In this document: in pieces, positions 2,712 through 47,306 of the stretch
Layout: each line of letters starts with the position of its first letter
Numbering within the stretch: position 1 is the stretch's first letter
Assembly (NCBI GenBank): GCA_002077065.1
Contig: NAJO01000044.1
Coordinates: forward strand, 186,001-250,000
Origin: Cryoendolithus antarcticus
Taxonomy: Eukaryota; Ascomycota; Dothideomycetes; Cladosporiales; Cladosporiaceae
Length of the DNA: 64,000 nucleotides
Reading direction: 5' to 3'
Notes under the pieces: generated by a model
Database searches by the model: none
What the model was told of the DNA's origin: nothing
What the model saw: the letters and a program-made list of their open reading frames with translations, nothing else
Program-made: the position numbers and the translations under genes

Positions 2712-3348
2712 ATGGACGATAGACTCAAGCTCACTGAAATGGAGCACAAGACCAAAGCCAAGATCGAGGAGACTCTACAGACCCTCAACGCGGACATGGA
2801 GGCGCCCGTACTTGACGAAGAGGCCATCCAGTATATCGCCACACATACTGCTCGTCTCATTCAGCAAGCCCGACGTATCACCATTGATCGGAAGAGTCCC
2901 TTTGTCTGGTCTAATCATGTCGAAGAAGCACTGCAATCTATGGCAGCAAGCGCACATGGCGATACATCGAATGTCACGGTCGACAAAGAGCAGTCAGGCA
3001 TCGATAAGGTCAAGATTCAGTCAATGCAGGGTAGTGCCTGTCTTGCGCTTCGTCAGCAGATCCTCGGTATGTGACGCAGCCAAACATGGGAGCGTGCTAG
3101 GACACTGACGACAAATCCCAGCTAATGCGCGTGTGACACTTGTTGGAAAAAGCAGCAAGGGCAACTTCGAGTTGGTCCTGAGATCTGCTGGGGCTGATGC
3201 AGCAGTCACGGCGCTTGTGGTGAGCGACGCCGAGGATCCGAAGCACTGCATGGTGCTTGTCAAGGGCAAAGCCTGCCACTCCGATTTCGCTGCTATGCAG
3301 TCCGCCGACGAGGTACTGAAGCATGCAGTGGTGGAGCGCTTCGTTTGA
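2712..3348 (+). CDS. Type A family protein: histone-fold-like N terminus plus NAR core
   Basis: Exons 2712-3066 and 3122-3348, 193 aa; the 55-nt phase-1 intron (gtatgt...cccag) interrupts codon 119. Residues 8-26, 34-59 and 67-79 read as three helices separated by short loops, with 'EEAIQYIATHTARLIQQA' as the long middle helix and 'VWSNHVEEAL' as loop plus third helix; this is the layout of a histone fold (inference). After a linker comes 'LALRQQIL', the intron, 'ANARVTLVG', two predicted strands and a final helix containing 'CHSDFAAMQS'. The genes at 26823, 27752 and 28860 share this whole plan and five shorter genes share the part from LRxQ onward. Function unknown; a DNA-binding or dimerising role is only a guess. 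Confidence 0.75.
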
Positions 3349-3952
3349 ACTGTCCAATGTAAGCGAATGAGGCGTCGACGTCGTTATACGCGGTCTACGT
3401 GCTGACTTCTCGGCCAGAAGAGAGCGATTGCGCCCGTGGTCGTGTAGCGATGCAGAATTAGCATTCGATGGTGGCTTCAGGGCTTGCATGACCTTTGGCG
3501 AAAGGGCAGAGAGGTGGCACTCCAATCCTACGATAAGCAGTCGATGACCCGACATGGATGGGATCTTGGTGAAACCGGTGCGAAAGTTCCCGAGACTTGG
3601 ATTGATGTCAATCCCGTTACATTGCTGCCTTGTCCCACATCTCTAATATTACATCCTCTCATTCATCCGCCATGTATCTGTCCGTTTCAGAGCGTATTAT
3701 ACATCATCAGGGGAATATCATACAGCCAGCCCAAGTCTTCGTAAGGAAAGTCAAGTCGTGATACAATAGTCCGCGTCCGTTCAAGTTCGTCTTGATGGTA
3801 CATCGTTGTGCAGAACCAGATCGTTAAGGAAAGCAAAATTCGAAGCAAGGTGTTGTGTTGCCGTGTGGCAGTGTCGGTGAGGAAGTTCTGGTCGCATCAC
3901 AGGATTATGGCAAAGCTGAAGCGATTGCAAAGTAGGCGTAGAGACTTTGCAA
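3349..3952. other. Intergenic between convergent genes
   Basis: This 600-base gap lies between two genes that converge on it, so it holds two 3' untranslated regions. Open frames at 3484-3744 (+) and 3781-4032 (-) show no homology or splice support. No repeat seen. Confidence 0.5.
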
Positions 3953-4880
3953 TCATGTCTGAGATCGGGTCGGCTCAGTAGGACCAGAGGAGGGAGGCCT
4001 ATCGGGTCCTGCAGTGACCATGCGAGGTTCACTCGGTTGCTGTGTCGCCTGCTCCAAAGCCGGCGCAGGAGCTAGCGGCGGGCCTGGGATCATCGAAGGT
4101 ATTGTACCAGCTCCACTCGTTTCTCTGTGACGCGTTATAGCTGCTAGAGCGGGTGAATCCCTCTGCTCCGCCTGTACGGCATATGGACTCTCGTAGACCG
4201 GTGGCTGCATCTGCGCCATGCTACTGGGCTCCAGACGCATGCTTCTGCCTCGTTTCCTCTTTCCCGAAGATGAGCTGGAATTGCTCGACGTCTTCTGACC
4301 TGTGGGCGTGCTAATCATACCGGAGATGGGCACGCGTTGAAGCGGCGGGAGCGAGGCGCGAGGATCGGGAGCTGAGGGACCCGAAGGGTAAGAAGTCTGC
4401 ATGGAAGGCAGCGGCGCGGTGTATTGTAGTGCCTCGCGCGGCGCATATGCTGGTCCAACAGTGCCAATCGAGGCCGCAAGCGCGGCGGACTCAAGTTGCG
4501 CTGGAGGTGGATTCTTCGGCGGACGTCCGCGCTTGCGTTTCGGTGGCTGCGCTTGACCGATTTGCGATGACATTTGCGGTGGCAGACTCATTCCAGATGT
4601 AGACGTGAGCTTGGGCATGATCGCGCGAGGTGGGGCTGCGTCAGAGCCCCAGGGTCTTTTGAGGGAGCCGCCGATTGGTGCTGAGAGGGGTGTGTGAGGA
4701 ACGTTCTGGGATAGTGGGGAGTGTGCAGCGCGTTTGAGCTCTTCGAAGGCAAAGCGACAGGCATTGAGGGACCGGCCTGTTCGGTATTAGCAACCTGCCA
4801 CGAATTGGACTCCAACGCAGGATAGCCGCACCTGGCGGGAGAGGCATGTCCTCCCATCGTGGTTGTATTTGATTTGCCAT
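3953..4880 (-). CDS. AT-hook, Pro/Ser-rich nuclear protein
   Basis: Exons 4832-4880 and 3953-4776 on the minus strand, 290 aa; the 55-nt phase-1 intron has donor gtgcgg and acceptor gaacag. Splicing produces a continuous N terminus running 'RWEDMPLPPG' into 'RSLNACRFAFEELKR', which supports the model. At about residue 100 is 'KRKRGRPPKNPP', an AT-hook core (GRP flanked by basic residues) known to bind the minor groove of AT-rich DNA, and a second basic cluster 'GKRKRGRSMR' follows later. The rest is low-complexity Pro/Ser/Gln/Ala sequence, probably disordered. A chromatin or transcription role is likely from the AT-hook; the exact identity is not recognised. The short N-terminal W...R...A...F motif could be the end of a Myb-like helix. 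Confidence 0.75.
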
Positions 4881-6127
4881 TACCACATTAAGTAGGTTCG
4901 TGGACGATATGGAAGCGCATTTTATGATCTCTGCCAATAGGTAATTCTGCGTTGTGATGTAAGTCCTGTGCCTTGTGCCCAGCTGCGGTAAAACGGTATA
5001 CCTTTTCGTCATTAGAGAAGCCCGGTCCGTCGCGAGGGCCATAGCCAGCCATAGGTTGACAGATAAAGGGGAACAGTTCGGATCGTCGTGTCGCAGACTC
5101 ATGAGAAACATACGTCGCAAAGGTCGGGAAGTCGTACAGATATGAAGTCGCTCAAGGTGCTGAGGCGCGTACAGCTCGTCAAGTCATTAGGTCGGGCCGG
5201 TCGAAGACAAAAGAGAAGTGCTCTGTGGTGCGCGCTTCGAAGGTACAGATCCAGGCAGATGCGCTCGGCGTGAGAAGCTCGTGAGGAGAGGTGCAGCAAG
5301 ACTGCAGACGCTGTGTAGGAGGTTCAAACGAGTGTGTGAGAAGTGCGTCGGCGTCAATGCAAGGGGACTAGGAAAGATGCATGGCGGGGGCCATTGTAGA
5401 AAAGCGCGGTCTGGTGCACAGAAGACGAGAGTAATACGCAGCGCCTGCTGAATAACTTGCAGGGAGCGCGGGTGATAGGAGATGGAAGGAAAATGCGTCC
5501 GCCGTCTGGAGATGAAACGCGCTGCAGGAGCATGCAGAGGGTGCATTAGTCGCGATCTTGTTTTCAACTCGTGCATGAAGTGATGAACGGACCGTGTGAG
5601 GACCTGAACATATATACATGATCGACTTACAGACAGAGGCTGCCGAAGCCATTGCTAAGTCTCAGGTGACAGGCTCGGCGTTACATTGGGCATTGCAACA
5701 TGATTACACTCGGTATGCGATGCCAACAAATTTCTTGGGATTGACGTGTGTTGTCAAGAACCGGGTGGAGCCATGGCGCAAGACCTGCAGGAGGCACGGC
5801 ACGCGCCGACCCAAGATTGTTCTTCGAGTATTCTTCCGTGCTCGTCAGAGTACTGCCGAACCGGGACGAGGTCCGTTAGTCCATTCCGACTGCACGGGAC
5901 GTGGACGATACAAAGTAGAGAACCCGTCGCTCGCTCAAGTGCACTTCTCTCACACTCCGCCAGCTGTGCAACTAGCCATTTCGCCATGGTTTGAAGAAGC
6001 AGTCACATTGCCAGTTTGGTTTCGAAATACATGCAGTCTCGGCCCTGCTGTTACACCAGCCGCCGAAGTCTCACTCTACGCGCCGCATGAACGCCATGAT
6101 GCAATGCGATATCATACATGCAGCATC
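4881..6127. other. Intergenic, long 5' flank of the AT-hook gene
   Basis: About 1.2 kb without a supported gene. Many overlapping short frames occur on both strands (5187-5652 minus, 5618-6145 plus), none with a recognisable domain or a convincing splice partner. The part next to 4880 should be promoter and 5' leader of the AT-hook gene; a TATA-like 'acatatatacatg' lies near 5608-5620. The part next to 6128 is the 3' flank of the GH39 gene. Confidence 0.45.
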
Positions 6128-13202: not shown

Positions 13203-13679
13203 GATCTTGGTTCATGATCAAGAAACTTTGATGCATGTGTCGAAGACGCGATAGCGCGCTTGACGCAGTGGTAACATTGCGTACCGGCAGTAGCGCCGGC
13301 AATCGTGAGCCAATCAGGTGATTTTCTCTCTGGACTGACATCGGAGTTGGCAAGCTGCATACTTCTCTGGACGACCTGATTCAAAGCAAAGCAGACCGTA
13401 GGAGTTGACCGGAGAAAAGGCCTGTAGGCAATGATACAATTATCCTGTAGACTAAGATCTGAAGCTCACTACCCGTGAGATCGCCACATTCCGACACGAT
13501 GTAGTAAGATCGCCTCCTAGATCCTCTTTCTGTGCATCTTCAAGATGGCGGAGCACAAAAACATCTCAAGCAGATGCGTTGCAGATGGCCGAGCGGACCA
13601 TGGAATCTATAGGTGTGGTTGAAGCGTACTTTCATCACTTGTAGACGCGAGGCTGCTGAACCATACCCGCGCGAGATCA
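13203..13679. other. Divergent promoter region, POP8 / type C gene 1
   Basis: POP8 is transcribed leftward and the first type C gene rightward from here. No gene supported. Short minus-strand frames up to 13384 overlap the POP8 5' side without splice evidence. Confidence 0.45.
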
Positions 13680-14191
13680 ATGTCCAACATCGTGAGCTTC
13701 TTTGATGTCCGCGGACAGGCCATCGGTAAGCATCTCCCTCTGTTACCAACGTCCTCATCACTGACTCCTTCGCCAAAGCCAACGCAAGACTTCTCTTCAG
13801 GGCTGTCCTACCCAAGCGTTCGATACAGCTCGAGAAGTTCGACCCAGTAATCGACATTGTACTAGTGCACAGTACCGACAAGTATCGTGCCGTGATAGTA
13901 TGGCAGGACACGTCTAAGTTGCGTGCCTGGCATCAGTTCCTCGTCGGACCGGGACACAGTGCCCCAGAGGAAGCGCTCCATCTGCTACTGCAAGAGAGTG
14001 TACGACTGCTGATGAAGTGCGATAGCTGGTCAGCGCCCATCCTCCTGGATGCCGAAATCATGAGCATACAAGGTGACAGCTGGCTTGCTATGGACTCAGA
14101 GATGCTAGAAGGCCAGTGTGGAATCAGACGACGGCTCGTGCACATGACGTCGGTCCTCCCCATGATAGCGATCACTTTTCTGCGTATTTGA
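13680..14191 (+). CDS. Type C family protein 1 (NAR core)
   Basis: Exons 13680-13725 and 13779-14191, 152 aa; 53-nt phase-1 intron (gtaagc, branch cactgac, acceptor caaag). Exon 1 encodes only 'MSNIVSFFDVRGQAI'; exon 2 starts 'ANARLLFRAVLPKR'. Shared core landmarks with the genes at 15020 and 16244: N-A-R-x-L-F-R, F-D-P-V-I-D-I-V, 'YRAVIVWQ', 'WHQFLVGPG', 'LLLQESVRLL' and 'LAMDSEMLE'. Unlike them it stops early after the core. The same frame reopens directly after the TGA at 14189-14191 and stays open to 14623 with a Thr/Asp/Ser-rich sequence resembling the low-complexity tails of its neighbours, so the gene may have been shortened by a nonsense change or have an unseen intron. Function unknown. 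Confidence 0.65.
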
Positions 14192-14623
14192 ATCCTGACG
14201 CCTGTTTGGCTTTTGGACTGCCATGGCCAGGAAGAGGGGCTATTCAGGCGCAAGAGCCGTTTCTTTCCAGCGAAGACTTCCACTGGTACTGCACTGATCC
14301 CACATATAATCGATATATGGCCCCGTGCGATGTCCGGCATGCCAGTGGTTGCCGTCACAGAGCCAAATACTACAGATGCTGACCTCACAGATACTGACAT
14401 CGCAAACCTTGAAGTCGGAGACATTAGTATCCCGGGCACCAGCACTCCAAGAATTGAGACATTAGAACACAACACATCAAATCTGGGTCTCGATGCCATA
14501 GTCACTACAGACACCATCACTGCGGATCCCAGCGCCGGAGACTCAGACGTACAGAGCTTCCACACCCCACCGCAATCATGGGCTCAGATCGTCCGCTCTG
14601 GAGGGTCTGCAAGAAGAGCTTAG
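14192..14623 (+). pseudogene. Possible detached tail of type C gene 1
   Basis: In the same frame as exon 2 of the preceding gene, 143 codons are open after its stop, ending 'SWAQIVRSGGSARRA'. Composition is rich in Thr, Asp, Ile and Ser, similar in spirit to the disordered tails of the next two genes though not alignable. An alternative splice (gtattt at 14182, acceptor near 14228) would avoid the stop but enters another frame that ends at 14382. I cannot decide between a decayed tail, a separate exon, or chance. Confidence 0.3.
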
Positions 14624-15019
14624 ATATGGGAGACCGTATTGGTCCGAGATCATCAGACACTAGCTTTGAGAACAGTGGCCTAGCGTGGGTACGCCCCATG
14701 TCCCTCGGTCCCAAATCCTATCCCAGACCATGTCCAAGGTGATTACGGTGGCCCTCAGGTTCTAGCTGCGTTCAGTGATATGTCACGTGCGGCCCAGAGC
14801 TATGTACGCAGCACCCGCAGTAGACTCGCACAGAATTCAGGACGCTTCTACGGTCATCTAGTCCCGCGGAGACGCTACTCACGACAAGAAAAGAGCGAAA
14901 TCACCAGATGCCTGTCTCTGAGGCGGAAGTGAAAGATGTAGTACTACATACAAAGTCCTACAGCGGGACCGTACAGCATCTCGCTACACCCGGCCCACTC
15001 CTGCGGCTCAGATCAGACA
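14624..15019. other. Spacer between type C genes 1 and 2
   Basis: About 400 bases with no supported gene; promoter of the next gene is expected here. Confidence 0.4.
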
Positions 15020-15809
15020 ATGTCAAACTCCACCTTCTACTTATCAATACGCGAGCAGGTCATCGGTAAGGACAGGCTCCTCCTCGCTTCCGCAGCCGCA
15101 CAAAGTGACACTGATCCGTGCAGCCAACGCCCGTCCGCTCTTCAGAAACCTCCAACCACAGCGCATAGCGATGGAACGTAACATGGATCCGCGCTTCGAT
15201 GTTGTGACTACTCGACCAGACATTGGGTACCGCGCTACCCTCATTTGGCAGGCCGTCCTCGCACCTGATCAACAATGGCATCAGTTCATCTCCGGTCCCG
15301 GTGCTGAGACGCCAATACTTGCTCTCATTGCCCTTCTGGTGGAGACTGTACAATTACTTTCAACAACTAGAGGGTGGCTCGCACCTCTCCGACAGGACTT
15401 CGAGACATTGGTGACTTTCCAGAATGGTTGCACGGTCACGATGGACATTGCGATTGCCCAGAGTACGGCATGGAACCAGACTGGTGGGCAAGGTCCGGGA
15501 GCAGGAACAGGTTTGGCGTCAGCTCCATCGAGCGGTGCTGCACCGCCAACACAGCAAGCTCCGAGTGGTGCCGCTGCTGGACTCAACCCGTCCCAAGCTG
15601 CGAATGAAAACGACGCACAGGTTTCGCATGCGGCATCGATCTCGAACGCCCCCGGTCACCAGCCTTACGCCTCACGTCCTCATCATCCGCATCCCGAGCA
15701 ACGGGCGCCTGCTGCAGCTTCTGCAAACGAAGCCACGGCGCCAAGGCCTGTGAGGGCCACCAATGTCAAGCAAGAGACGTCGAGTTCGGACGATGAGATG
15801 AGCACTTGA
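15020..15809 (+). CDS. Type C family protein 2 (NAR core, disordered tail)
   Basis: Exons 15020-15065 and 15124-15809, 243 aa; 58-nt phase-1 intron (gtaagg...gtgcag). Exon 1 encodes 'MSNSTFYLSIREQVI', exon 2 begins 'ANARPLFRNLQPQRI'. The core (about residues 16-115) carries 'DPRFDVV', 'YRATLIWQ', 'WHQFISGPG' and 'LLVETVQLL' like its two tandem neighbours. The last 125 residues are Ala/Pro/Gln/Ser-rich and end in an acidic 'NVKQETSSSDDEMST'; the lysine there sits in a V-K-x-E context that fits a SUMO acceptor consensus (inference). The 46-nt first exon has the same length as in gene 1. Function unknown. Confidence 0.75.
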
Positions 15810-16243
15810 GAGTAGTGATGCTGATGGACAGTGATGATTCGCATGGCACACTTGATGTGAGCTGGGGCGAGCGGTAGGTAGAGCAGTCCTAGTCGCAGCT
15901 CTGGAAGCAAGTGAGTTCAGTGGATGTGTCTGTACACGTATGGCCAATGGATCTACCAGTGAATCAGCGCACTTATCTTGGTGACTAAGCTATGTCCAGT
16001 GGAAAGGCGCATCAAATCCGGAGGTGCTACGTCTGCGGAGGCTAATGTTTGCAGATCTCCGTCTCGCGTTCCGAAATCTCCATCTGAGATCAACTCAGGA
16101 TCGGAATATCAAGTGATCAAGATCGCGATGAGCATCTGCTAGATGAGCCGTGAGTCACTGAGCTAGAGGTGGCCTTCATAAGGCCGCCAGAGTATGAGCC
16201 CATGTGGCCCTGAGGAAGAGCTACATTCTGCACGACTTCGAAT
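15810..16243. other. Spacer between type C genes 2 and 3
   Basis: Short overlapping frames only; no gene supported. Holds the terminator of gene 2 and promoter of gene 3. Confidence 0.4.
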
Positions 16244-16932
16244 ATGGCTGCTACCGAAAATGTCAATATCTCACTTGTTCGCGAACAGGCTCTGGGTAAG
16301 CTCGTCATTCCCGCGCATAGAATTGTCCATCACAAATGCTGACAGATGCAGCTAATGCACGAATCCTCTTCAGAATCTTGAACCCCCAGCAGATCGCAGA
16401 CGAGCAAGGCGTAGATCCGACCTTCAACGTCGCCATCACTCATTTCGACGATCGTTACCATGCTGCGGTCGTGTGGCAGAGCAACACGCATCCGATTCCG
16501 AGGAAATGGCACATGTTCATCCATGGTCCACCCGAACGCATCATTGGTCGCGCTTACATAATGCTTCTGCACGAATGCATCCGTTTACTGACGCTCAGTG
16601 GTCGCTGGACAGCTCCAGACCATCCCAGATCCGAGACCATGCGCTATCAGAGCGGTGCCCAAGTCACACTGGAGTCTGAGGTCGCAAAGAGGATGCTGAG
16701 GCTGCGTTCGAATGATGGCGTCCCTGAGCTGCGGTCAGAATCACGACAAGCAAATACTGCTAGCGGAGCCAATCAATCGGGTCCTGGCCCTCAGGCGTTG
16801 GACGCTAGCAGTCTTACTGCACCAAGTGCTCCAGCCGTCAATGCTGGGAATGCCCGCGCCCAGATGCCAGTTTCTCCTGTCAGTGCTGTAGCAAAGACGT
16901 TGAAGAATGAGAATGAAGAGATGAGCAACTGA
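16244..16932 (+). CDS. Type C family protein 3 (NAR core, disordered tail)
   Basis: Exons 16244-16295 and 16352-16932, 210 aa; 56-nt phase-1 intron (gtaagc...atgcag). Exon 1 ends 'SLVREQAL', exon 2 starts 'ANARILFRILNPQQI'. Core landmarks: 'DPTFNVAITHFDDRYHAAV', 'WHMFIHGP', 'MLLHECIRLL', 'VTLESEVAKRML'. It aligns by eye with the gene at 15020 across the core and, like it, ends in a low-complexity tail finishing with acidic 'KNENEEMSN'. The similar ends (EEMSN here, DEMST in gene 2) suggest the terminal motif is conserved. Function unknown. It is the last of three tandem same-strand copies, followed by the convergent SPT4. Confidence 0.75.
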
Positions 16933-17146
16933 GAAGTCCGGGTAGGGGTTGAAACCTAGTATAGTGCAGGATAGCCAGCAAAGTGATTGCCTTCAATAGT
17001 AGCTGAACAAATTCTGATGGCCTCAGCCGTTGGCCGTGCTTTGACTCCTCTCCTTCGCGAAGTCCGCTGCGAGCTCCCAGTTCGCCTCATTTTCTCACAC
17101 CTAACGCCACGCTAATCACGCAGAAAACAGCCCGCATGCTCGGATT

Positions 17147-17536
17147 TCAAATATCTTCGCCCGTACTGCCATCTCTCGGGATGTAATGCACGCCCGCATT
17201 CTCAGCCGCGTTGATATACTCATCCGGCAGCTACACACCAGTCAGCAACTTCTCCCAACATCACATCAACACATCACTAACCACTCCCTCGACCTTCACA
17301 GCATACGTCCCTGGCGTGTAGCCTTGCAGGCGCTGCCACTTCGCCACCCAGCTGCTCTCCGGGTCCGCCAGTGCGATCATGCCCTCGAAAACTGCACTAG
17401 TGCATTCTTGTAAGCTGTCGGGATTTTGCCGGATCTCGAGAAAGTCTTCGCAGTTTGGACAGCCGTTTTGGAGGAATTTGGTCGCTGACTGGACGAACGA
17501 GCAGACCATGCAGGCGCGGAGACCGCGGTTGGACAT
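17147..17536 (-). CDS. SPT4: Transcription elongation factor Spt4
   Basis: Exons 17282-17536 and 17147-17230 (minus), 112 aa; 51-nt phase-0 intron (gttagt...gtgtag). The N-terminal zinc finger is C9-x2-C12 and C26-x2-C29 ('RACMVC', 'GCPNC'). The second exon gives 'LPDEYINAAENAGVHYIPRDG', restoring the usual Spt4 C terminus that an unspliced reading would miss. Spt4 pairs with Spt5 (DSIF) to keep RNA polymerase II processive. I chose the ATG at 17536 because the zinc finger follows immediately at the normal distance; an upstream in-frame ATG at 17602 would add 22 non-conserved residues. Confidence 0.96.
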
Positions 17537-17911
17537 CGTGAGATGATTTGAATTGTAAAGTCGAGAGTGGTGATTGCGATGGCGAGTTCCCGGTTTCTTC
17601 AATGGAAGTTGTAGTGATTGTCAGAGGAAGTTGACAAAGTGGAAGAGGTGCAGTCAACTTGTCTGAGGACAGGCCGCACAGACCTTCTGCGGCTCAAATA
17701 AGGTTCCACGAAGGCTAACATTTGACTTCATGCGTGAAGGGCCAGATTTGACCTCACACGATACTTTTGCAGAGCTTAGCAGAGCATCGATACTGTCTGG
17801 AATAGCTTGCAGAACTCAGAAGCGAAATACACAAACCTTTCCGAGCCCTGCTTCGCCCATAGAAGGCACTCCAACGGCTACACGCCACTCTCACAGTCAC
17901 CACCACCCACC
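17537..17911. promoter_or_regulatory. Divergent promoter SPT4 / PPT1
   Basis: A 375-base region from which SPT4 is read leftward and PPT1 rightward. In-frame sequence upstream of the PPT1 start (from 17807) is open but not conserved. No specific factor site is recognised. Confidence 0.5.
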
Positions 17912-21803: not shown

Positions 21804-23338
21804 GATTGTATCTGTATGCGTGTATCTCGATGACAGCACGGCGGGCCTTTGTGCTGGGAAAGCTGGATGCTGGCTGCTGGGCTCTCTCCACTCTTTTCGC
21901 GTGCTGTGCAGATCGGGCTTCCGATTAGGGCGGCGCTACTGTACCTCGACCCTTCTCGGCGGGTATCTCAAATGCTGTCTTCGAAATTCGATGTGATGAA
22001 CTTCTCTGTCAGTGTCGTCGTTCACAGTCTCAACAACACAGCAAGGCAGATGGACGGCAGGTGTATATCAGACAACAAGATGTGTGAGAATTGCAAGGGA
22101 GTGCGAGGGGCAGGGTGCGGCATGAAACGTGGTCGGCTCGCTAGCTGAAGCCCATCTTGATGGGCCATGTTTCGCAATCCGGGGCATGGACGAGAATTCA
22201 TCGAGGCCAGCTCCTGCGACACCCGCCAAGCAGCGCCTGTCCAACCAATCTGCTGCGAATGCTTGCACTCGAATATGCATGTGAAAGGCGTCAGCTTGAT
22301 GCTGCACCGATGGCTACCTGCACTGTTCGAGAGTTATCACCGACGCAGCTTCATCTCTCGATGGTGCTGTATGCACAACATGCGCGAATCCCCCAGACCG
22401 ATCATCCCCGCCTGTCACTCCCTCACACTTGAAGATCCCTCCTCGTCATGTCGCGTACAAACACCTCCGACACCTCAACCCGCTCATCCCAGTATGCCAA
22501 CCCGCGCCCCTCGCCCCTTCAAATACACACGCCATAGCCCCCGCTCCTCTTCCACACCAAACTCCTCATCCTCCTTCTACATCTGACAAAGTCGACACAG
22601 CGATATTCATTCGTGTCGCCTCCTCTGACCAATTAGAGGACAGCATGCTGTAGCTGAAACATGCGGGAACTATCAAATGCCCTGGCGGCATTCCGAACAG
22701 GGGCTTGCTGCAGATCATTGGTGAGGGGACCGGGGCCGGGGGTTTGGGAAGCGAGCGCAGGATTTGGGTTTTTGTTTGACAGTTCGTGAGTTGCTTCGAG
22801 AGTCGTTTGACATGGTGGTCATCGGTATTTGATCTACTGTGGCGAAAGACGTGTACTCTGCAGTGGTATTGCAACCTTCCGCGTCGACAACTATGTTGCA
22901 GCGATGCGATTTATCATGGATTTTGGTATTGTTACTGTGCCACAGGGCACGCTCCAAGAATAGTTCCACCCCATGCATGCGGTGCATGTTCCCAATGCGA
23001 CGGTCAGGACATTGTACCTCCGTACCACCCATGCAATAGAACTGTACAACCCTCGTCAAAACCATATGCACATGAAGAACATCACCACGTCTTGTCCTTT
23101 ATCCACATCGAGCATGCACCGCGACGGTACCGGTCAAAGGTAGCGAAGCCGTACGCGCCTATATACACACCACCAACAAGTGCTTGACGTGCCGGACGCT
23201 TGACGCGCATGAGCGCTTGCGCTTCACGTGGTATTCGTCAAGGTGACCATGGAAGCGCTAGAAGGCCTGCGAGGTGAAGTGCCGAGCACTTTACTCTCCT
23301 GTGCCATTGTCGCGTGTGCTATCTATGCTATCTTGCGT
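21804..23338. other. Intergenic 1.5 kb, no gene supported
   Basis: Lies between two minus-strand genes, so it holds the promoter of the 20216-21803 gene and the 3' flank of COG1. Several overlapping frames (21849-22148, 22157-22653, 22786-23187 plus; 22566-23071 minus) show no domain, and none extends with clear introns. No repeats or tRNA recognised. Confidence 0.45.
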
Positions 23339-26464: not shown

Positions 26465-26822
26465 GGAGGGGCGCGGGCTGAACAACACGTTTTGATGGGT
26501 TGACAAGGGATGAGAGAGGGAAGACACGGGAGGTCAGCGGGTGGAATGAGCATTAGCGAGGCGTTTGGGGAGTGGCTTTGCTGAGTATGTGCATCCTCTC
26601 TTTACTTTATTTCAAGGATCAGCCCCTGCACCAGGTCTCCTTCTTAGTCCGCCACTTCCCTTTCAGTACTCTAGTTGCATTGACGCTCTGCGAGCTGCAA
26701 CAGTGAAGAGATATGCAGCCCTTTTCTGCTACATCTGCATCAGTGTCTGTGAATATGCGAGCAACGTGGAGGGTTCTCGACCAATCTCGCACAAGTTCAA
26801 CAACCCGTTCAGGACCAGCCAC
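26465..26822. other. Intergenic between convergent genes
   Basis: 3' flanks of the tri-snRNP gene and of the type A gene at 26823. No gene supported. Confidence 0.45.
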
Positions 26823-27508
26823 TCAGATTCTCCGCTCCGCCATCATCTCCTTCAGCGCGCTGCTGACTGCTCTCAAAGTCTTGAGATCCGAGGTATCGCT
26901 AAGCTTGCGTGCGTCGGCTATCCTGGGTGTTAGTCGCGAGAGATCCAAGATGCGCGACTCACAGTCATACATACCGAGAATCTGCGCCCTCAGCAGCACC
27001 ACCGCGCCCTCCTTCGACTCCGAATCCATCTTCGCTCTTTTCCTCCGGAATTCGGGATCCCACACCGACTGCAACTTCTTCCTCACTGTCAATCCTCCCG
27101 GCGGCGCAGCCTTGATGACCTCTGCGATCGCCTCCTCCGCATCCTTGGACATCACGTACTCTTTCCAATGATCCATCCGCCCACTACGGCACTTCTCCAT
27201 CACCAGTGCGACATGAGCGCCGATGAGTTTCGTCGCCTCTTTGGTGAACTGCGGCTCGTCGGGCTGCGGACGAGTGCATACTTCATTCTCCCAGTCGTCT
27301 TCGTCCTCGGTGTCGTAGCGGCCTGGAAGCTCATTCCATAGGTTATCGGCGGCCTTCTGGAGGACATCATGGATGGTTTCTTTGATGCTGTGACCGAAGG
27401 GGGTGAGGGCCAGGTTCGGATTGGAAGAGGACATGGCGTACGGCTGGGGGAAATGATCAGCGTGAGGCATGCGATGTCATTGTGTGGATGTCCGATGCGA
27501 CTCACCAT
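26823..27508 (-). CDS. Type A family protein with an ATG-only first exon and shortened core
   Basis: Exons 27506-27508, 26975-27443 and 26823-26917 (minus), 188 aa. The first exon is just the start codon (ATG, then gtgagt; 62-nt intron, acceptor cccag), followed by 'PYAMSSSNPNLAL'. The second intron (57 nt, gtatgt...gatag) is phase 1 inside 'LLRAQIL|ADARKL', exactly as in its paralogues. The N-terminal part has 'PFGHSIKETIHDVLQKAAD', then 'EATKLIGAHVALVMEKC' as the long histone-fold-like helix and 'YVMSKDAEEAIAEVI' as the third. The core after the intron is only about 31 residues, keeping the last helix ('SDLKTLRAVSSALKEM') but lacking the beta part, so it may be degenerate. Function unknown. 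Confidence 0.65.
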
Positions 27509-27751
27509 GTTTACGGTATCGGAGGTTGATGTGGAGTGTTGCTGGTCAGAGAGTGTTATAGGTCAAGAGCCAAGTGAGCGGAGGTTCAAGTACAAGTGAT
27601 GGGAAGACTTTGGCATGTGATTGTTCAACCTACAGCTTCATTTGCATATCTACTGCTTGCGGGAATGTCGACTCCTTCAATAGGCGTAGATGAAGCCTTC
27701 TGCTATGCCAGTCACTGCGCACCAACCCGCACGCCATCTGCTGGCAAGGCT
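27509..27751. promoter_or_regulatory. Short spacer between two type A genes
   Basis: Both neighbours are on the minus strand, so this must hold the 3' end of the 27752 gene and the promoter of the 26823 gene. No motif recognised. Confidence 0.4.
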
Positions 27752-28480
27752 TCACTTCCACTGCTTCGCGACGTCTCCCTTCAGCTTGCGGTCAAGCGAC
27801 TGCAGCGCAGCCAGATCCGACTCGCAGGCATCGCCTTGCGCAAGGCATTCCACGGACGCACCCTGGGACGTCTTTCCCACGTCCATGGCGGTGGTCGAAG
27901 TCCCGATGGACTTGAGGACGAGCTCGGTGAACGCCACCTTGCGTCCATAGCCTGAGTCTTGCACTTCCACTAGTGCGCGCGCGTTGGCTGTGATCTGAGT
28001 TAGATTTGTTGTTACTGCTACCGCATGGATGGAAGTGCGCTTACCAAGGATCTGCTTCCTCAACACCGCAGCGTCACCTCCCACCTTCCCTCCATTCTTC
28101 GCCTTCGCCACCGAAGCGGCTCTTGCCGCTTCCTTCCCCGGCACCTGCTCCTCCCTCGGCCCGTTCTCCACAGCATCGATCGCCTCCTGCGTGTCGAAGT
28201 CGCAGACGATGTCCTGCACATGGCTGTCGCGGGAGGTGATCATGGCCTTTTCCATGACGAGAGCGGCATGCGCTCCGAGCAGTCTAGTAGCGCCGTCACT
28301 GCATGGATCCCACTCATCGCGGTCGAGGGTGTCGACGGCGGCTTGCAGGGCTTTGTCGACGAGGTGCTTGGTGGTGTGGCCAAACTCTGTGAGACCGTGA
28401 GGTCAGGATTCATCGCGTAGGCCTGTGAGATGTGTAAGCATTTATAATGCATGGGAGATTACCAAAACGAGGCTTACCAT
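27752..28480 (-). CDS. Type A family protein with an ambiguous 5' splice
   Basis: Proposed exons 28478-28480 (ATG only), 28045-28384 and 27752-27987 (minus), 192 aa in frame. The second intron (57 nt, gtaagc...cacag) is phase 1 in 'VLRKQIL|ANARALVEV'. After the start codon (ATG, then gtaagc) two acceptors compete: the one after 'gtctcacagag' gives M-FGHTTKHLVDKALQ and stays in frame; the one at 28422 gives 'MAYAMNPDLTVS', matching the paralogue at 26823, but then runs out of frame by one base before FGHTT. The conserved middle helix reads 'GATRLLGAHAALVMEKA', and the core ends 'ACESDLAALQSLDRKL'. Either splicing moved to a new site or the gene has a small lesion. Function unknown. Confidence 0.6.
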
Positions 28481-28859
28481 GGCTGCGATAAGGGAAAATG
28501 TTAAGGTTGTTGGTAGTCAAGAGCTAGATGAGGGTGAAATGAAGTCGAAGTGGAAGTACGATTGGGAGAAAGCAATGGCATGTGATGAACTCGTCAACTT
28601 CTTCACTTGCTACTTCTTCACTTACTACTCCTTCACTTACTACTCCATCGTTTCCGGCAACTTGGGCGCATCGAAAGTGATGCACGCTATGCCAGTCCGC
28701 CATAGATGCAGAACCCGTACTTGGAGCAGACGCTGAATCAGAGCGACGACAGCTACTCCCACTTCTGAGTACTGCCACTCATTCGCCAACAATGCTACAT
28801 CTGCGAGCCTCAATGACAATTACCCCTCCTACCACACTCCAGTGGGTGCTGATCTCCGT
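28481..28859. other. Spacer between type A genes with a 15-bp tandem repeat
   Basis: About 380 bases upstream of the 27752 gene and downstream of the 28860 gene, all on the minus strand. Apart from the short repeat at 28599-28643, nothing is recognised. Confidence 0.45.
28599..28643 (+). repeat. Three tandem copies of a 15-bp unit
   Basis: Units at 28599-28613, 28614-28628 and 28629-28643 share the form t(t/c)cttcactt(a/g)ctac and differ at only one or two positions. It sits about 120 bases upstream of the type A start codon at 28480, so it could vary promoter spacing. Confidence 0.85.
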
Positions 28860-29469
28860 CTAAGGAAATCTGAAAGCCACCTTCAGCTTCACAAACGCGT
28901 CGAGCGATCGGAGGGCCGCAAGATCACAGTTGGTAGGACGGCTCTCCATCAGCAATTGCGGATCCGTACCTTCCTGCGATCTGTACACGATGAAGGCGAT
29001 GATCTTGTCGGCGGATGACTTCACGAGGAGGTCGAGCTTGCTGTGCTGGCTAAACAACACCGCCGCATTTCCTGTGCTATATGTCAGCTGCCTGCGAAGG
29101 GCTGTTTTTCCGTCCGTTCGGCTTACCCAAGATCTGCTCGCGAAGCGCAAGGCTGTCGGCCACCTGCACTGGCTTAAGTTTGGACCCTTGGGCTCGCCCA
29201 GTCTCATGACCCAGGAACTTCCCCGTAGTAGACTGGTCTCTCCGCAGTGCCGACTTGACATGTCCCACCCCTATATAAGACTCGTCGCCCTCCTCGCGCC
29301 AGAGTTGACACGCAGACTCTGCCACGCGACCAACGTGGTTGGCAATGTGCACCATGGCTTCGTCGGTGAATCTGGCGTCGGTGCGGACCTTGTTGAAGGC
29401 TTGGAGGGTCCTTTCGATCTCTGCTCGCATGTGGCCCTCGAAGTCTGTGAGTCTGATGTTTTCGTCCAT
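28860..29469 (-). CDS. Type A family protein, closest match to the gene at 2712
   Basis: Exons 29127-29469 and 28860-29071 (minus), 184 aa; 55-nt phase-1 intron (gtaagc...cacag) in 'LALREQIL|GNAAVLFSQ'. It starts 'MDENIRLTDFEGHMRAEIE', matching the start of the 2712 gene (MDDRLKLTEMEHKTKAKIE) residue by residue, and carries the histone-fold-like helices at about 8-26, 35-58 ('TDEAMVHIANHVGRVAESA') and 67-78 ('IGVGHVKSALRRD'). The core ends 'NCDLAALRSLDAFVKLKV'. Intron length (55 nt) equals that of the 2712 gene. A type B gene lies just upstream on the same strand, as at the other locus. Function unknown. Confidence 0.75.
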
Positions 29470-29824
29470 GGTGGCGGGTACTGTGTTATCGACGTCAGTA
29501 AGCTATGCGGGCAGTCGTGTATGCGGGGAGTTCACTCACGCGAAATGAGAGGGACTAGATGTGTTGTTGTGTGTGAAGAAGGGAGTCTTAGTGTCTCTCT
29601 GTATCAAAGCTGGAGGACAGCAAACAAGACCGTTTGTGCTGGGTACGTCCGCTGCGGATAGGTGATGGATTCGCAGCGGGCGAATGTTCCTTCCTGTCCC
29701 TCGCATGAGCTGGGAGACAATTCGTAAAGGTAGAGGAGGAGAGGAACCGAGACATTCCTTGCTGATGATTGACATTACGCCGCACCAAGACGCAATTCCC
29801 TTCGTCAATCTATGCTAAGCTGGC
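29470..29824. other. Spacer between type B paralogue 2 and type A gene
   Basis: 355 bases, promoter of the type A gene at 29469 and terminator of the type B gene. No gene supported. Confidence 0.4.
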
Positions 29825-30670
29825 TCAAGGTCGAGCTCCGCTACACCGGCCTAGCCACATACAAGATCGTAGCGCATACTTCCACGACTCCATTCCCGCT
29901 TCATCTGAATCAGGCCCATCATTGCCTGTGAGCGTCCTGTATGGCAAGGCCACACGGGCGCCTCTCATTTCAGCATCTGCTGCAACAGGTACACCGAGAC
30001 GATCGTCATCGCAATGCCTACGCGTTTGTCAGTGGTCAATTGAATCTCTCTGTAGCACGCAGCATGACATACAGATGAGTAGATCTCGGCAATTAGCTAA
30101 GGCGATCAATGTATCTTGCGCGGTAGTTCCAGTGTCATCAGCAGCCACAGCATCAGCCTGACTTCCAGCAAGTCGTAGCACGGGCGTCGTCAGCGCTTTC
30201 TCGGCGGTGTCGCTGATTGAGCAATCGATGAGGTCAGCCCCGGCATTTGGAGTTGTCACCTCGTCTGCCTTTGATACGTCCACAGGACTACTTGCTACTC
30301 CCACCGATTTTTGCGCCTCATCATCAAGGGTCTGTTGGAATCGTTTCACTACAGTGAGCCTCGTGTCCCGTGGCAGGTCTCCGATTCCCTCCACCAGCTC
30401 ATCCAATGCCATCATGACTATCGCTCTATCCATCACATCAGCATCGGCGATCCACTCTGCTTTCTCGCAATTCGTCTCAACTTGTGACAGGATCGTGCTG
30501 ATATGATCGATAAGGGCAAGGATGCCATCACATTCCTCGATGCTATGGTCTTCAACCAGGCGCAAGATCTCCAAATCGTTCTCGAAGGCAGCGGATAGCC
30601 TAGTACGGACCGATGCGATGAGTGCGCTCATCTGCGGAGGAGCGGAGTCGTCGTGTTGCTTGACTTCCAT
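29825..30670 (-). CDS. Unknown protein, type B paralogue 2
   Basis: Exons 30073-30670 and 29825-30018 (minus), 263 aa; 54-nt phase-1 intron (gtatgt...gcgtag). An unspliced reading stops at 30029. The protein is mostly helical and acidic: 'VRTRLSAAFENDLEILRLV', 'CDGILALIDHISTILSQV', 'AEWIADADVMDRAIVMM', 'LPRDTRLTVVKRFQQTLDD', a disordered middle, then 'ALANCRDLLI' before the intron. The E-W-I-x-D-x-x-V-M-x-x-A-I block and the C-R-D block with the intron two codons later are shared with the gene at 1285. After the intron it reads 'CIAMTIGLGVPVAADAE', whose length and end are less certain. No known domain. Confidence 0.6.
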
Positions 30671-31116
30671 TCTGCCGAGGAGTGGTGATAGCAGTGGTCA
30701 GCGAGGCACGATGTGGAGACAACTCAGATTGGGGGCAATCAGGCCCATTATATGCGTGCAGGGATAACAGATAGTAGCATGACAAGGCTTGTTTCGAAAA
30801 CATTGTCTCGGGTGCAGAGAAAGCTCATCGAACAATTGTCAATACAGTGCAGGCTGACAAAAGGGCAAGCGAAACAAGGAAGTAATGCCAGAACTTACGA
30901 GAAACAGCATACTTCCGACGCTTGAGACGTTTGGGATTCGAGGGAAATCTACCGCTCGCTGCCGGTCGTGGGCTCGAGGAATGTTAGCCGGGTGAGATAA
31001 AGACTCCTCAGGACACATGGATTTCGGCAAGTCTTCTGATCCGGGTTCAGCTTTGCTGCGGCAGCTCTACGTAATTGTTGGCGAGAAGCTTGCTCCTTCC
31101 AGAGTTTACCGTGCAA
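30671..31116. other. Intergenic, no gene supported
   Basis: Between two minus-strand genes: promoter of the type B gene and 3' flank of the Zn2Cys6 gene. No repeats or RNA genes seen. Confidence 0.45.
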
Positions 31117-40011: not shown

Positions 40012-40049
40012 AGAGATATGGACCCAACTAAAGCCATTAGGAAGTTGTC

Positions 40050-43236: not shown

Positions 43237-45508
43237 TCAGTCTCCTCCAAACATCTCCCCCGCCTCCCTACAATACCTGGCCTCCCCCCTGCCCCCCGCA
43301 GTCTCACTAGCCCAACACACAACACCCGCGTCAAGCGTAGCCCCAACGACATTCTCCACAGCGCCCAGCACCGCAAAGCCAATAGTTCCCGCTATGAGCG
43401 CCACAATGTAGGCGTACAGACTGCCCTTCAGCCCTGCGCCGGACTCAGTGGCGATCTTGAGATTGTGCGCTGTGCGGACCCAGCCGCCGAAGGCTAGTGC
43501 GACGCTCACGAGCCAGCGCGTGGCTTGCAGCAGGAGCTTGGCGAGGCGGTAGGGCAGGAGTGGCGAGTCTGGGGAGCCGACGGGGCTGAAGGAGGAGGGG
43601 GAGAGCGTGTTGGAGGGATTGGTGCGGGAGACGAAGTTGAGTGTGCTCATGTTCCGGGCGGAGATTGAGAGCGGCTGCGAGTGGATTGCGGCGTAGGTGA
43701 GGGTTAGAGGATTGGTGAGAGTAGCGAGTGAGGTCGGGATCAGGGCGTAGAAGCACATGTTTAGCAGTCCGGAGAGGCGGCCGGGCAGGATTATGAGCGG
43801 CAGGCGGACGAGGAGGGAGAGGAAGGTTGAGAGGCAGATCGTGCCCAGCAGTGCGCCGGTAGCGTGCAGGAAGGACGCTTTGACTACGGCTTCGCTTGTG
43901 GGTTGCGCGGGGGCGTAGCGGTGGAAGTACCACTGGCTGACTGTTGCAGCTGTTGTCGCGCGCTGGATGCCCGAGATGATACCTAGGGTCCAGAGATACT
44001 GCAGGGCAAAGAAGGCGCCCAGCCACCAGGCGTTGGCGTCGAGCAGAAACTTGCGTGCGCCTACTAGCGTGCCGTTCAGGAAGATGCGCTCGAACATGAG
44101 CATCCAGATCCAAGTGCATGTGACCGTCGCTGCGAGCGTGCCGAAGCCGAGAACGACCAGCCAAGGCGATGCGGTCAAGATGCGTGTGCTAAACTCGAGT
44201 ATCGAGATCGACTTTGCGAGACTATGCCGCGATTTGACGACGGACATGATCCAGAAGATGGCGAGCATGGCTGGGATGAGAGACAGCCATCGCATCGCCT
44301 TGTCTTGTATACTCGTGCCGTGCCACTCGCCCTTGAAGCTGCTGATCAGCGGGTACAGGGCGAATGCGATCAGCACAGTCGGCACTGCGACAATGAGGGT
44401 ATACACCAGCGGTCGGACGTAGTGTCGCAGTAGTGACAGCCAGATACATGCGACGATCACTGCGATCATAGTGTCCCACAACAGCATGCTGGTGCTTCCT
44501 CGCAGTGCACTGTAGATCGAGTCGCCAAGCGGCTTCTTCGACGAAGGTGTTGATGTATGGAACCACGTCAAAACGAAAGCTCCGAACATCGCGAACAGCG
44601 ATATCTGCCAGAGAGTCGCCCAGAAAGCATCGTGCTTCGGCGGCTCCAGCGCTGGTAGTATCACAGTCGGTGGCACACTCTCTCGATCGGGTGACTGCGG
44701 TCTCGGCATGCCCAGCAGAGCTTCCTCGTCCGTTTCTCGTGGCATGAAGGCGCTGTACTGTGTGTCTTGCTTCTGTGGTCGCAATGTCTGTATCGGCGCA
44801 GGTCGATCGTCCAGATCGCTGATTGGTGACAGATTTGCAAGTGTCTCGGGCACATCAGCCGTCATTGTGCTCTCCAGATCCACATCGACGAGCCTGCCTT
44901 TTCCTTTCGTGCTTGCCTCCGACCCAGGAGTACTTCTAGAGTCCTGCAGCGGCAGCTCCTTCGATGTCCGTGTCCTGCCCCTTGGCGCACTTCGATCTCT
45001 GTCGTGGTCCTGCCCTTCCGGTTGCCGCTCCAGCTTCTCCACAGTATCATCCTCCATCTCCGAACTTTCAGTCATGTGGCTCCGCCCGAAGTGCTGTCGA
45101 CTTCGCTGCAGCGCGTACATGTCCTCCACCTCCCTCTCATGCTCATCGCCCTCGTCCTCCTCTTCGAAGTCGCCGTGCGCGGAGTAGAAGAGTGGCGCTT
45201 GCGGATCTTGTCGCGATAGTCGTCCAGCGAAGGGGAAGCGCGATTGTGAGGATGCCTGCTGCTGTTGCTGGTATGGGTTCGGCATGCCGGGTCGCTGGAC
45301 ATAGCGGGAGTTCGTGTCTAGTCGTCGGCGGTCGAGAGGTTGTCGCGAGCGACTTGAGCGATCGCCTTGTTGTGAGAAGGAGAGATGTGCGTTGGATTGC
45401 TGGAGAAAACGGGAGGCATCTGTGCTTGAGATTAGTCACGCGATCATGGCGGGAGTGATGAGTGGTGTTTCGTGAGTGACACTCGCTAGGCTTACATTCG
45501 GAGAACAT
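43237..45508 (-). CDS. PNS1: Choline transporter-like protein PNS1 (SLC44/CTL)
   Basis: Exons 45496-45508 and 43237-45419 (minus), 731 aa; the first exon is only 13 nt and the 76-nt phase-1 intron (gtaagc...cacag) joins it to give 'MFSEYASRFLQQSNAHLSF', the start I know from ascomycete members. About 210 disordered acidic residues precede the transporter domain, which begins at 'ATLWQISLFAMFGAFVLTW' and has ten or so membrane helices, with 'MLLWDTMIAVIVACIWLSLL', 'WTLGIISGIQRATTAATVSQWYF' (the conserved CTL region, split here across two helices) and 'GFAVLGAVENVVGA' at the end. CTL proteins sit in the plasma membrane; some move choline or ethanolamine. Confidence 0.94.
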
Positions 45509-46052
45509 GGTGTTAGAGAGCTCAAGGCTCCCTCTGAGTGTGCCGCAATCGGCCACTCAGTGATGCAGTGTATGCTCGCTCACAGCTCAAGTGAAGCTGG
45601 TCGAGTCGGTTGTAGACGCCGGATGCAGCGAGCTCGCTCTAATGATGTCGTAGGCAGCACCGTGAAAGTCGACAGCAGTGTATGGATGAGTATGTGCGAT
45701 GAAGTGTGGGAGATGTGTAAGAGAGTAGGATTAGCAGCGTAGGTGTACAGTTCGTGAGTCAGTAGGAGCGATCACACTGCGCCTGGGTTGACGTGGATAA
45801 GGCGACCGGGTGACGATACCAGCCATGCGGAGTACCGAAGTCTATTGGGTCCTGCGGGCCGTGCCGCACATGCATGATCAACTTCGTCTTTGACAGACGC
45901 CCGAACATGTAGCATGACTTTATATTCCCCAAACAAAACTTAGCGTTTCCAGCATCTTCCTCTTTGATGGCCAAGCTGACTGTCGTATCTTGTGTCTCCT
46001 CCTTCATCGTCGCCTGCCATTGATTCTGCCCTTAGAGTGCCTAGTTGCCATA
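45509..46052. other. Intergenic upstream of PNS1
   Basis: 544 bases containing the PNS1 promoter and the 3' flank of the type C gene at 46053. A minus-strand 82-codon frame at 45759-46007 begins with an acidic 'MKEETQDTT' and contains 'GNAKFCLGNIKS', faintly like a core start; there is no LRxQ or intron before it, so I do not call it. Confidence 0.45.
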
Positions 46053-46504
46053 TCACTGAGAAGTACACCCCTCAAGAGTGTGGCCATGGTCCACGCGCAA
46101 AGCACCTGCGCAGGAATGACAGATCGTTTCGTCTGTTCGCTTTGCAAGTTCGGCCATCGCTGCCATGGTCGAGTCGTAGTCCCCGGGCGCGGCCATCAGA
46201 CAATCGAGTTGGCGATGATGAGGCTCGAAGTACACTACGCCTGCCACATGTCTCCCACCCTTACTTGGAGTAAGGACGTAGAAGGTTGGAGAAGCAGGTG
46301 AGCCAGCGGGGCCGCCGATATGGGGAAAGGGTTTGCGTCCGTATGGCGATGCTGTCATGGACATCTGGTACAGTACTGTGATGTTGTCTGTGTTTGAGGT
46401 CAGCAAAGGCGCGCAATCGACCTTTGACATTGCTCACTGATTATTCGCGCGCGGAGAGCCTCCACTTCGACACAGCGGCTGGCGTGAGCTGCGGCAGCCT
46501 CCAT
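46053..46504 (-). CDS. Type C family protein 4 (NAR core, divergent)
   Basis: Exons 46438-46504 and 46053-46387 (minus), 133 aa; 50-nt phase-1 intron (gtgagc...cacag). Exon 1 is 67 nt and ends 'EVEALRARII'; exon 2 starts 'NNITVLYQM'. The core reads 'PTFYVLTPSK', 'HVAGVVYFEPHHRQLDCLM', 'DSTMAAMAELAKR'. It resembles its neighbour at 46813 in exon 1 length (67 nt), junction and 'T-x-L-Y-x-(M/I)', and more loosely the 13-17 kb genes. The first in-frame ATG after an upstream stop is at 46504. Ends in 'CHSCAGALRVDHGH', absent from others. Function unknown. Confidence 0.65.
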
Positions 46505-46812
46505 AATGGCGTTGGTTCCGACTCCACTGATAAGTCGTTGATTCCTTATTTGCGTGGCTATTGCCAATGAGTGGAGTTTCAATTTGGTAGATCTTGGTGA
46601 ATCTTTGGAAAGCAGTGCTGATGCAATTTCCTGCGCGGCCGCGATGCACGTCACACAGGAGGAAAGCACGATCGGCTTTCGAGATGATGGGAGTTAGGGA
46701 GGTACAAGCGCTACATCCAGTCTGTGCCAAAACTTAGTGTACGCTCAGAACCCACGATAACTGTAGGCAGAAAATTTGCTGCAAGCCTCGCACTACCATT
46801 GTTCGCGCAATT
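46505..46812. other. Spacer between type C genes 4 and 5
   Basis: 308 bases; frames here overlap in three phases on the minus strand but contain in-frame stops before the ATG at 46504. Promoter of gene 4 expected. Confidence 0.4.
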
Positions 46813-47306
46813 TCACCAGCTGCCAGCCCGCCAAACGTCTAAGCATTCACCACGCGCCTGGACTTCTCCCCGTCCACAGACCCTCCGCCTCATGCCGATC
46901 CCAAGGCGAAGTGGGTAACCTAGCGACGTTTGCGTCTTTCCCAGCAGATCCCCCAAAGCTGCAAGATCCGAGTGCACCGTGCAAGTGGTCAAGAGGTAGA
47001 TTATCTTGCCGTCGCGGGTATTGCAGTAGGCAACGTTCGCCCAATAGCGGCCTTCGGTCTCGGCAGTGATGACGAAAAGTTGGGGAACTGCAGCAGGCGC
47101 CAGTAATGGCAACGCAAAGGGTCCCTCGATGCGGGGAAAGTCCGCGACCCGTTTGGCGATGTGGTATAAGATGGTGGTGTTGTCTTGATCACTGTCAGTA
47201 CTCCGTATCGGTGAGACTGCGATGTCAGGATAGACTTGCCGATGATTTGGGCGCGGAGATTCTGGGTCGCCATGTGGCGGACGAGTGGTGGATTGTGATT
47301 CTCCAT
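46813..47306 (-). CDS. Type C family protein 5 with a GC-AG intron
   Basis: Exons 47240-47306 and 46813-47183 (minus), 145 aa. Exon 1 (67 nt) encodes 'MENHNPPLVRHMATQNLRAQII'-type sequence ending NLRAQII; the phase-1 intron starts with gcaagt (a GC donor) and ends atcaag, 56 nt. Exon 2 begins 'DNTTILYHIAKRVADFP'. Core: 'PQLFVITAET', 'YWANVAYCNTRDGKIIYLL', 'TVHSDLAALGDLLGK', the last matching 'CHSDFAAMQS' and 'CDLAALRSL' of type A proteins. Using any nearby GT donor breaks the frame relative to its paralogue, so the GC donor is the best fit. C terminus Arg/Gly-rich. Function unknown. Confidence 0.65.

What the first reader, a model, noticed from the sequence alone, without database searches (positions are those of the whole stretch)
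2712..47306. Dispersed family of nine unknown genes sharing one intron position
Seen in sequence: genes at 2712, 13680, 15020, 16244, 26823, 27752, 28860, 46053 and 46813 all read L/V-R-x-Q-(I/A/V)-(L/I), then a phase-1 intron of 50-58 nt at the same codon, then A/G/D/N-N-A-R-like residues and a core with a strand ending near L-(V/L)-(K/S)-G and a final helix often written (S/C)-D-L-A-A-L-x-S-L. In the 15020 and 16244 copies the core landmarks are NARxLFR, YxAxxxWQ, WHxFxxGP and L-x-E-x-(V/I)-(R/Q)-L-L. They occur at four loci between conserved housekeeping genes, in tandem sets of 3, 3 and 2. Such spread with high divergence and a fixed splice site points to an old, fast-evolving fungal family. 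I know of no described name for it.
Basis: partly seen in the sequence, partly recalled or inferred. Interest (0 to 1): 0.85.

Follow-up and report, generated by a model that had tools for sequence, protein, structure and literature searches.

The report
Fast-changing fungal histone-like, RNA-binding-like gene family
Nine small genes in an Antarctic rock fungus belong to one undescribed family with a shared intron and a predicted fold resembling an RNA-binding domain, some of them joined to a histone-like domain, and most of them sit in patches of unusually strong divergence between conserved genes; what they do is unknown.

Summary
All nine genes exist at the stated places, each with a phase-1 intron of 50-58 nt at the same codon. 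The window is Cryoendolithus antarcticus. Profile comparisons join the subgroups B/C/D, A/F/G and H/I: 0 of 200 column shuffles reach the real score in each of three comparisons. No Pfam family matches. Two AlphaFold models from disjoint alignments give the same helix-three-strands-helix core, whose nearest solved folds are double-stranded-RNA-binding domains (dsRBDs) and, for A, also HPF/YfiA; the dsRBD lysine signature is absent. A, E, F and G add an N-terminal domain; in the model of A it resembles a histone fold. Contig C92 carries eight counterparts, five disrupted. Five further members lie elsewhere, with the same intron. Of four gaps over 1 kb in the window-C92 alignment of 1-30,308, three hold family genes; the H/I locus is similar. 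Best reading: an undescribed family turning over by birth and death, whose A/E/F/G members may be nuclear histone-fold adaptors. That function is inferred.

The parts
2712..3348 (+). Gene A (public model B0A48_15380), exons 2712-3066 and 3122-3348; histone-fold-like domain plus dsRBD-like core, 193 aa
   Evidence: identical to P0005; structure
3067..3121 (+). Phase-1 intron of A, 55 nt, GT-AG
13680..14191 (+). Gene B, exons 13680-13725 and 13779-14191; core only; frame departs from P0003 after the core, so this copy looks disrupted
13726..13778 (+). Phase-1 intron of B, 53 nt
15020..15809 (+). Gene C (public model B0A48_15385 with another first exon), exons 15020-15065 and 15124-15809; core plus low-complexity tail ending in VKQETSSSDDEMST
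15066..15123 (+). Phase-1 intron of C, 58 nt
16244..16932 (+). Gene D (public model B0A48_15386), exons 16244-16295 and 16352-16932; core plus tail ending in LKNENEEMSN
   Evidence: structure
16296..16351 (+). Phase-1 intron of D, 56 nt
26823..27434 (-). Gene E (public model B0A48_15392 adds a four-residue leader), exons 27434-26975 and 26917-26823; N-domain kept, core strands lost
26918..26974 (-). Phase-1 intron of E, 57 nt
27752..28393 (-). Gene F, readable exons 28393-28045 and 27987-27752; no in-frame ATG ahead of the conserved domain, probably disrupted
27988..28044 (-). Phase-1 intron of F, 57 nt
28860..29469 (-). Gene G, exons 29469-29127 and 29071-28860; N-domain plus core, 184 aa
29072..29126 (-). 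Phase-1 intron of G, 55 nt
46053..46504 (-). Gene H, exons 46504-46438 and 46387-46053; core with a longer first loop
46388..46437 (-). Phase-1 intron of H, 50 nt
46813..47306 (-). Gene I, exons 47306-47240 and 47183-46813; core
47184..47239 (-). Phase-1 intron of I, 56 nt, GC-AG
14900..17100 (.). Stretch of strong divergence from C92 holding C and D: 49-66% identity in eleven 200-base bins; 72-92% in the adjoining 14,100-14,899 and 17,100-17,699
800..3690 (.). Stretch of strong divergence holding A (and the uncounted gene J): 40-54% in nine of ten bins from 801 to 2750, 65% in 2001-2200; beyond 2750 only the blastn gap
27621..30308 (.). Stretch without blastn alignment to C92 holding F and G; one end of the inversion; sampled by global alignment only to 27,900
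45900..47500 (.). Stretch of strong divergence holding H and I: 44-63% in 200-base bins (a 143-base patch at 46353-46495 is 74%); 82-90% on the low-coordinate side

Best explanation
The nine genes are one undescribed, probably lineage-limited fungal family. Its defining unit is a domain of about 80-90 residues with the order helix-strand-strand-strand-helix (dsRBD-like fold); an ancestral phase-1 intron cuts the first helix at L-R-x-Q-I-L | A-N-A-R. It comes in two architectures: the domain alone or with a tail (B, C, D, H, I), and the domain behind a three-helix, histone-fold-like domain (A, F, G; E keeps the N-domain but has lost the core strands). SHOWN by computation: common ancestry, fixed intron, predicted fold order, copies on C89 and C92, five further copies, disrupted copies, strong divergence at most family loci. 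INFERRED: the core lacks the lysine patch with which dsRBDs grip RNA, so it more likely serves as a protein-pairing module, as some non-canonical dsRBDs do (recalled); the N-domain pairs with a histone-fold partner (TAF, NF-Y or CENP type) in the nucleus; the family turns over by local duplication, divergence and decay. Probabilities: one family 0.95; dsRBD-like core 0.75; histone-fold N-domain 0.65; nuclear adaptor role 0.35.
Confidence: 0.5

Rival explanations
1. The core is a true RNA-binding dsRBD and the family works in RNA interference, RNA editing or antiviral defence, which would explain its rapid change.
For: Fold matches of D are led by dsRBDs of MLE/DHX9, Dicer, HYL1 and DRB proteins; a Rachicladosporium strain (CGMCC 3.30118) has core RNAi genes (PMC12560822, passages seen).
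Against: None of nine cores tested (A, B, C, D, F, G, H, I and C81) has a K-K-x-A-K-type patch; GPxH occurs only in B, and there after the third strand; net core charge is -2 to +3.
Confidence: 0.2
2. The loci behave like idiomorphs or other long-kept alternative haplotypes (self/non-self or mating-type-like), so the two homeologous contigs carry anciently split versions rather than fast-mutating copies.
For: Divergence rises sharply at the edges and covers spacer as well as coding DNA; dS of C is 1.75 and of D not measurable, against 0.22-0.85 in 14 frames outside the family loci with dN/dS below 0.2.
Against: Duplicate replacement, gene conversion or local loss and gain gives the same pattern. 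B and E in the same clusters are ordinary homeologs. Two non-family frames are also high (22718-23098, dS 1.05; 30032-30697, dS 1.24), one gap over 1 kb holds no counted family gene, and some spacers outside the islands go down to 60-68%. No population data.
Confidence: 0.12
3. The family is a decaying remnant without present function: relaxed constraint after genome duplication.
For: B and F look disrupted here; B', D', E', F' and H' carry stops or frame breaks on C92.
Against: dN/dS is 0.15 in E, 0.28 in B and 0.2-0.4 where measurable in A, C, F and G, below neutrality although rough at such divergence; A has a homologue of 83-84% identity in Oleoguttula sp. CCFEE 5521.
Confidence: 0.15
4. 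The subgroups are unrelated small genes and the shared intron motif is convergence or selection by the reader.
For: Identity between groups is only 17-21% to G; the C76 and C105 copies match the profile weakly (18.4 and 16.5 bits, C76 in two separate pieces).
Against: 0 of 200 column shuffles reach the real score in each of three group comparisons; same predicted core from disjoint alignments.
Confidence: 0.03

Closest known systems
Double-stranded-RNA-binding domain (dsRBD/DSRM) fold, e.g. HYL1, DHX9/MLE, DRB4
   Different: No Pfam match, no K-K-x-A-K patch, GPxH not at its usual place
Histone-fold proteins (TAFs, NF-Y, H2A-H2B, archaeal HMf)
   Different: No Pfam match; no partner known; joined to the dsRBD-like core
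Ribosome hibernation factor HPF/YfiA (protein Y) N-domain
   Different: HPF has an extra first strand and is a bacterial/plastid ribosome factor (recalled)
Lineage-limited fungal gene families that turn over by birth and death (recalled kind)
   Same: Small, tandem, divergent, with disrupted copies, no Pfam match
   Different: Fixed intron inside a structured domain, two domain architectures, loci that mostly coincide with stretches of strong divergence

Membership tests
dsRBD (DSRM) domain | helix-strand-strand-strand-helix fold | tested here: inconclusive
dsRBD (DSRM) domain | Sequence match to the Pfam dsRBD models | tested here: not met
   No Pfam family at all for 9 rows of A3; 5 families, none of them dsRBD, for 12 rows of A5; limit E 10, though HMMER's filters drop most matches above about 0.1
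dsRBD (DSRM) domain | K-K-x-A-K patch at the start of the last helix (recalled signature) | tested here: not met
   Absent in 9 of 9 cores searched: A, B, C, D, F, G, H, I, C81
dsRBD (DSRM) domain | Binds double-stranded RNA | not testable with these tools
   Needs protein
Histone-fold proteins | Three-helix fold with long central helix | tested here: inconclusive
Histone-fold proteins | Sequence match to a Pfam histone-fold family | tested here: not met
Histone-fold proteins | Pairs with a second histone fold | not testable with these tools
   No complex prediction available
The family defined here | Phase-1 intron directly after L-R-x-Q-(I/A/V)-(L/I) followed by A/G/D/N-N-like residues | tested here: met
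   9 of 9 window genes; A', B', C', D', H' on C92 by script (H' has an altered motif), E' and F' by reading; C81, C123, C76, C105 and C92:47 kb (selected by a pattern for this motif); I' not resolved

The most novel reading that the evidence does not exclude
A new protein architecture, a histone fold joined to a dsRBD-like module, belongs to a family whose loci behave like idiomorphs: sharply bounded islands of ancient divergence in otherwise collinear homeologous contigs. The family would then be a self/non-self or drive-like system that acts on chromatin.
Probability: 0.09. Interest if true: 0.8.

Novelty: new variant of a known kind. Interest (0 to 1): 0.55.

Why it matters
Families like this are nearly invisible to ordinary annotation: my three protein searches returned public models for four of the nine window genes (A, C, D, E), one with a different first exon; H and I were included only, which also missed known members. 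The fixed intron served as a handle that found five relatives which six protein searches of the genome had not shown. If the histone-fold plus dsRBD-like architecture is real, I know of no described case (recall; paper searches found none). The stretches of strong divergence allow a direct test of how such genes turn over after genome duplication.

Tried and rejected
Gene J at about 1285-2210 (+), next to A: its N-terminal part resembles the N-domain by eye and it has a phase-1 intron after R-D-A-M-I, but 57 of 1000 shuffles score as well against the N-domain profile, so it is not counted. Several searches cannot prove absence: the third protein search scored only the 7996 candidates sharing most words and missed even known members; six genome protein searches pointed to C89 and C92 alone, apart from one row on C2 at E 0.515 that I did not follow; the intron-pattern search then showed that to be too narrow. 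The pattern is weak: 30 matches against 27 for the reversed control; 13 of the 30 are family members (eight known, five new) and 17 are not. Two further patterns gave 19 matches (control 11) and 8 (control 7), with one and three known members; C89:104187 and C63:760622 could not be read. Rows Bx2 and Cx2 were in a wrong frame and are dropped; the open-frame rows were used for B and C. A's second exon gave no row. dS above about 1.5 is saturated and only shows 'more than the neighbours'. Sequence searches of solved structures gave only weak rows (best E 0.92, H-NS; 0.017, Nic96). Paper searches: none holds histone fold, double-stranded RNA binding domain, fusion and fungal together, none dsRBD with histone fold domain; one unrelated plant paper for lineage-specific gene family with conserved intron position and fungal.
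Full report
WHAT THE WINDOW IS. Proteins found in the databases and identical to window genes A and D are records of Cryoendolithus antarcticus, family Cladosporiaceae, formerly Rachicladosporium antarcticum (PMC10739867, passages seen). The window is C89:186001-250000 of a 46.97-Mb assembly in 149 contigs. The published draft was 47.4 Mb with 18,781 genes, from Illumina reads (PMC5502844, part 1 of 2 read, which holds the whole announcement); 'massive gene duplication' is mentioned for Rachicladosporium (PMC7325674, passages seen). That C89 and C92 are homeologs is my inference from about 83% identity and collinearity.

THE OBSERVATION. I modelled all nine genes. In 9 of 9 a phase-1 intron of 50-58 nt follows (L/V/I)-R-x-(Q/R)-(I/A/V)-(L/I). 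Eight introns are GT-AG and one (I) is GC-AG. Where more than one acceptor kept a long frame (C, D) I took the one that aligns with the others; public models of A, D and E agree with the choice. Seven of nine genes read from ATG to stop. B leaves the frame of its CCFEE 5018 homologue P0003 after the core, and F has no in-frame ATG before its conserved part. The public model of C has a different first exon (P0002), while the C92 counterpart of C has an exon 1 like that in my model.

ONE FAMILY. Three subgroups were aligned separately with homeologs: B/C/D, A/F/G and H/I. Profile comparisons score 39.2 (BCD-AFG), 29.4 (BCD-HI) and 53.7 (AFG-HI); in 200 column shuffles for each, the best scores were 18.7, 17.4 and 16.6. 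A joint alignment of ten members has three invariant and three nearly invariant columns. Pfam gives nothing above its cut-offs: best E 0.037 for the nine window proteins and for the 12 rows of A5, no row for the 9 members of A3.

HOMEOLOGOUS COPIES. Window 1-30.6 kb aligns to C92:161.6-191.0 kb in five pieces (88.6, 69.5, 83.3, 82.8 and 72.3% identity), with an inversion whose ends lie at the A locus and the F-G locus. Counterparts: A' (C92:164307-164927; it resembles both A and G), F', E', D', C', B', and H' and I' near C92:318-319 kb. A' and C' are open. B' (stop and frame change), D' (frame change), E' (stop), F' (frame change) and H' (stop) are disrupted: 5 of 8; I' is unresolved. The intron is at the same place in A', B', C', D' and H' by script and in E' and F' by reading (the script did not resolve these two).

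STRETCHES OF STRONG DIVERGENCE. In window 1-30,308 the blastn comparison leaves four gaps of over 1 kb: 780-1996, 2181-3691, 15301-17085 and 27621-30308. Three of the four hold family genes (A; the rest of C with D; F and G); the fourth, separated from A's gap by a 186-base patch, holds most of the uncounted gene J. Global alignment shows sharp edges: 80% to 44% at 800, 88% to 61% and 53% at 27,600, 59% to 76% and 92% at 17,100; a shuffled control gives 44%. Outside these stretches the lowest bins are 60-68% (13,300-13,699 and 26,600-26,799), so the C-D stretch (49-66%) overlaps the poorest spacers slightly. The H-I locus is similar: 82-90% below 45,900, 44-63% from there to about 47,500, with a 143-base patch at 74%. 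Synonymous divergence agrees: 0.22-0.85 in the 14 frames outside the family loci with dN/dS below 0.2 (some overlap one another), 0.32 for B and 0.72 for E, but 1.75 for C, not measurable for D, 1.4 for exon 2 of F, 2.7-3.2 for exon 1 of A and 1.9-3.2 for G, the last two against A'. Against a special link to the family: the frame of gene J (1.67) and two other non-family frames, 22718-23098 (1.05) and 30032-30697 (1.24), are also high.

OTHER MEMBERS. Six protein searches of the genome pointed only to C89 and C92, apart from one unfollowed row on C2 at E 0.515. A pattern for the exon-1 motif plus donor gave 30 matches against 27 for the reversed control. Reading each splice continuation: eight are known members, 17 are not family, and five are new: C81:29510 and C123:32187 (a pair starting MSDL-GIREQII | ANA), C76:473473 and C105:134656 (a second pair), and C92:47154. 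Against a profile of ten members they score 23.1, 21.5, 18.4, 16.5 and 23.0 bits; none of 500 full and 500 motif-keeping shuffles of each reaches its score. C89:104187 is a likely further one, unread.

DISTRIBUTION. Relatives in other strains: Rachicladosporium sp. CCFEE 5018 (P0003, P0009) and Oleoguttula sp. CCFEE 5521 (P0004, P0006). The search needs shared five-residue words, so wider absence is not shown.

HOW IT MOST LIKELY WORKS. The N-domain is the constrained part of E, which has lost the core strands in C. antarcticus, in its C92 copy and in the CCFEE 5018 relative. A histone fold normally needs a partner (established knowledge), so a nuclear adaptor that pairs with a TAF-, NF-Y- or CENP-type protein is my first choice. 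The core probably mediates protein contacts rather than RNA binding. C, D and their homeologs, although only about 44% identical in the best aligned parts, all end in Psi-K-x-E followed by acidic residues (4 of 4), which would fit SUMO attachment; this is a lead, not a test.

Noticed in passing
window about 1285-2210 (+): Gene J beside A, with a phase-1 intron after R-D-A-M-I and an N-terminal part that resembles the histone-fold-like domain by eye; also divergent from C92 (31% identity, dS 1.67). Profile support is not significant (57 of 1000 shuffles as good).
   Followed up: partly
window about 2.2-3.7 kb and 27.6-30.3 kb: The two ends of an inversion relative to C92 coincide with inversely oriented family genes (A on +, F and G on -), so recombination between paralogues may have caused it.
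   Followed up: partly
C89:104187-104209 (-) and C63:760622-760644 (-) of G000: Further matches to the exon-1 motif with donor; the first reads LREQIL and is probably another family member. The sequence could not be fetched.
   Followed up: no
window 15020-15809: The public model of C (B0A48_15385, P0002) has an upstream first exon in place of the conserved one; the homeolog suggests that the public model is wrong.
   Followed up: partly
C92 copies of B, D, E, F, H: Five of eight C92 counterparts are disrupted against two of nine in the window, a possible bias of decay between the homeologous contigs.
   Followed up: partly
window 30032-30697 (-) and 22718-23098 (-): Two open frames that are not family members also differ strongly from C92 (dS 1.24 and 1.05).
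   Followed up: no
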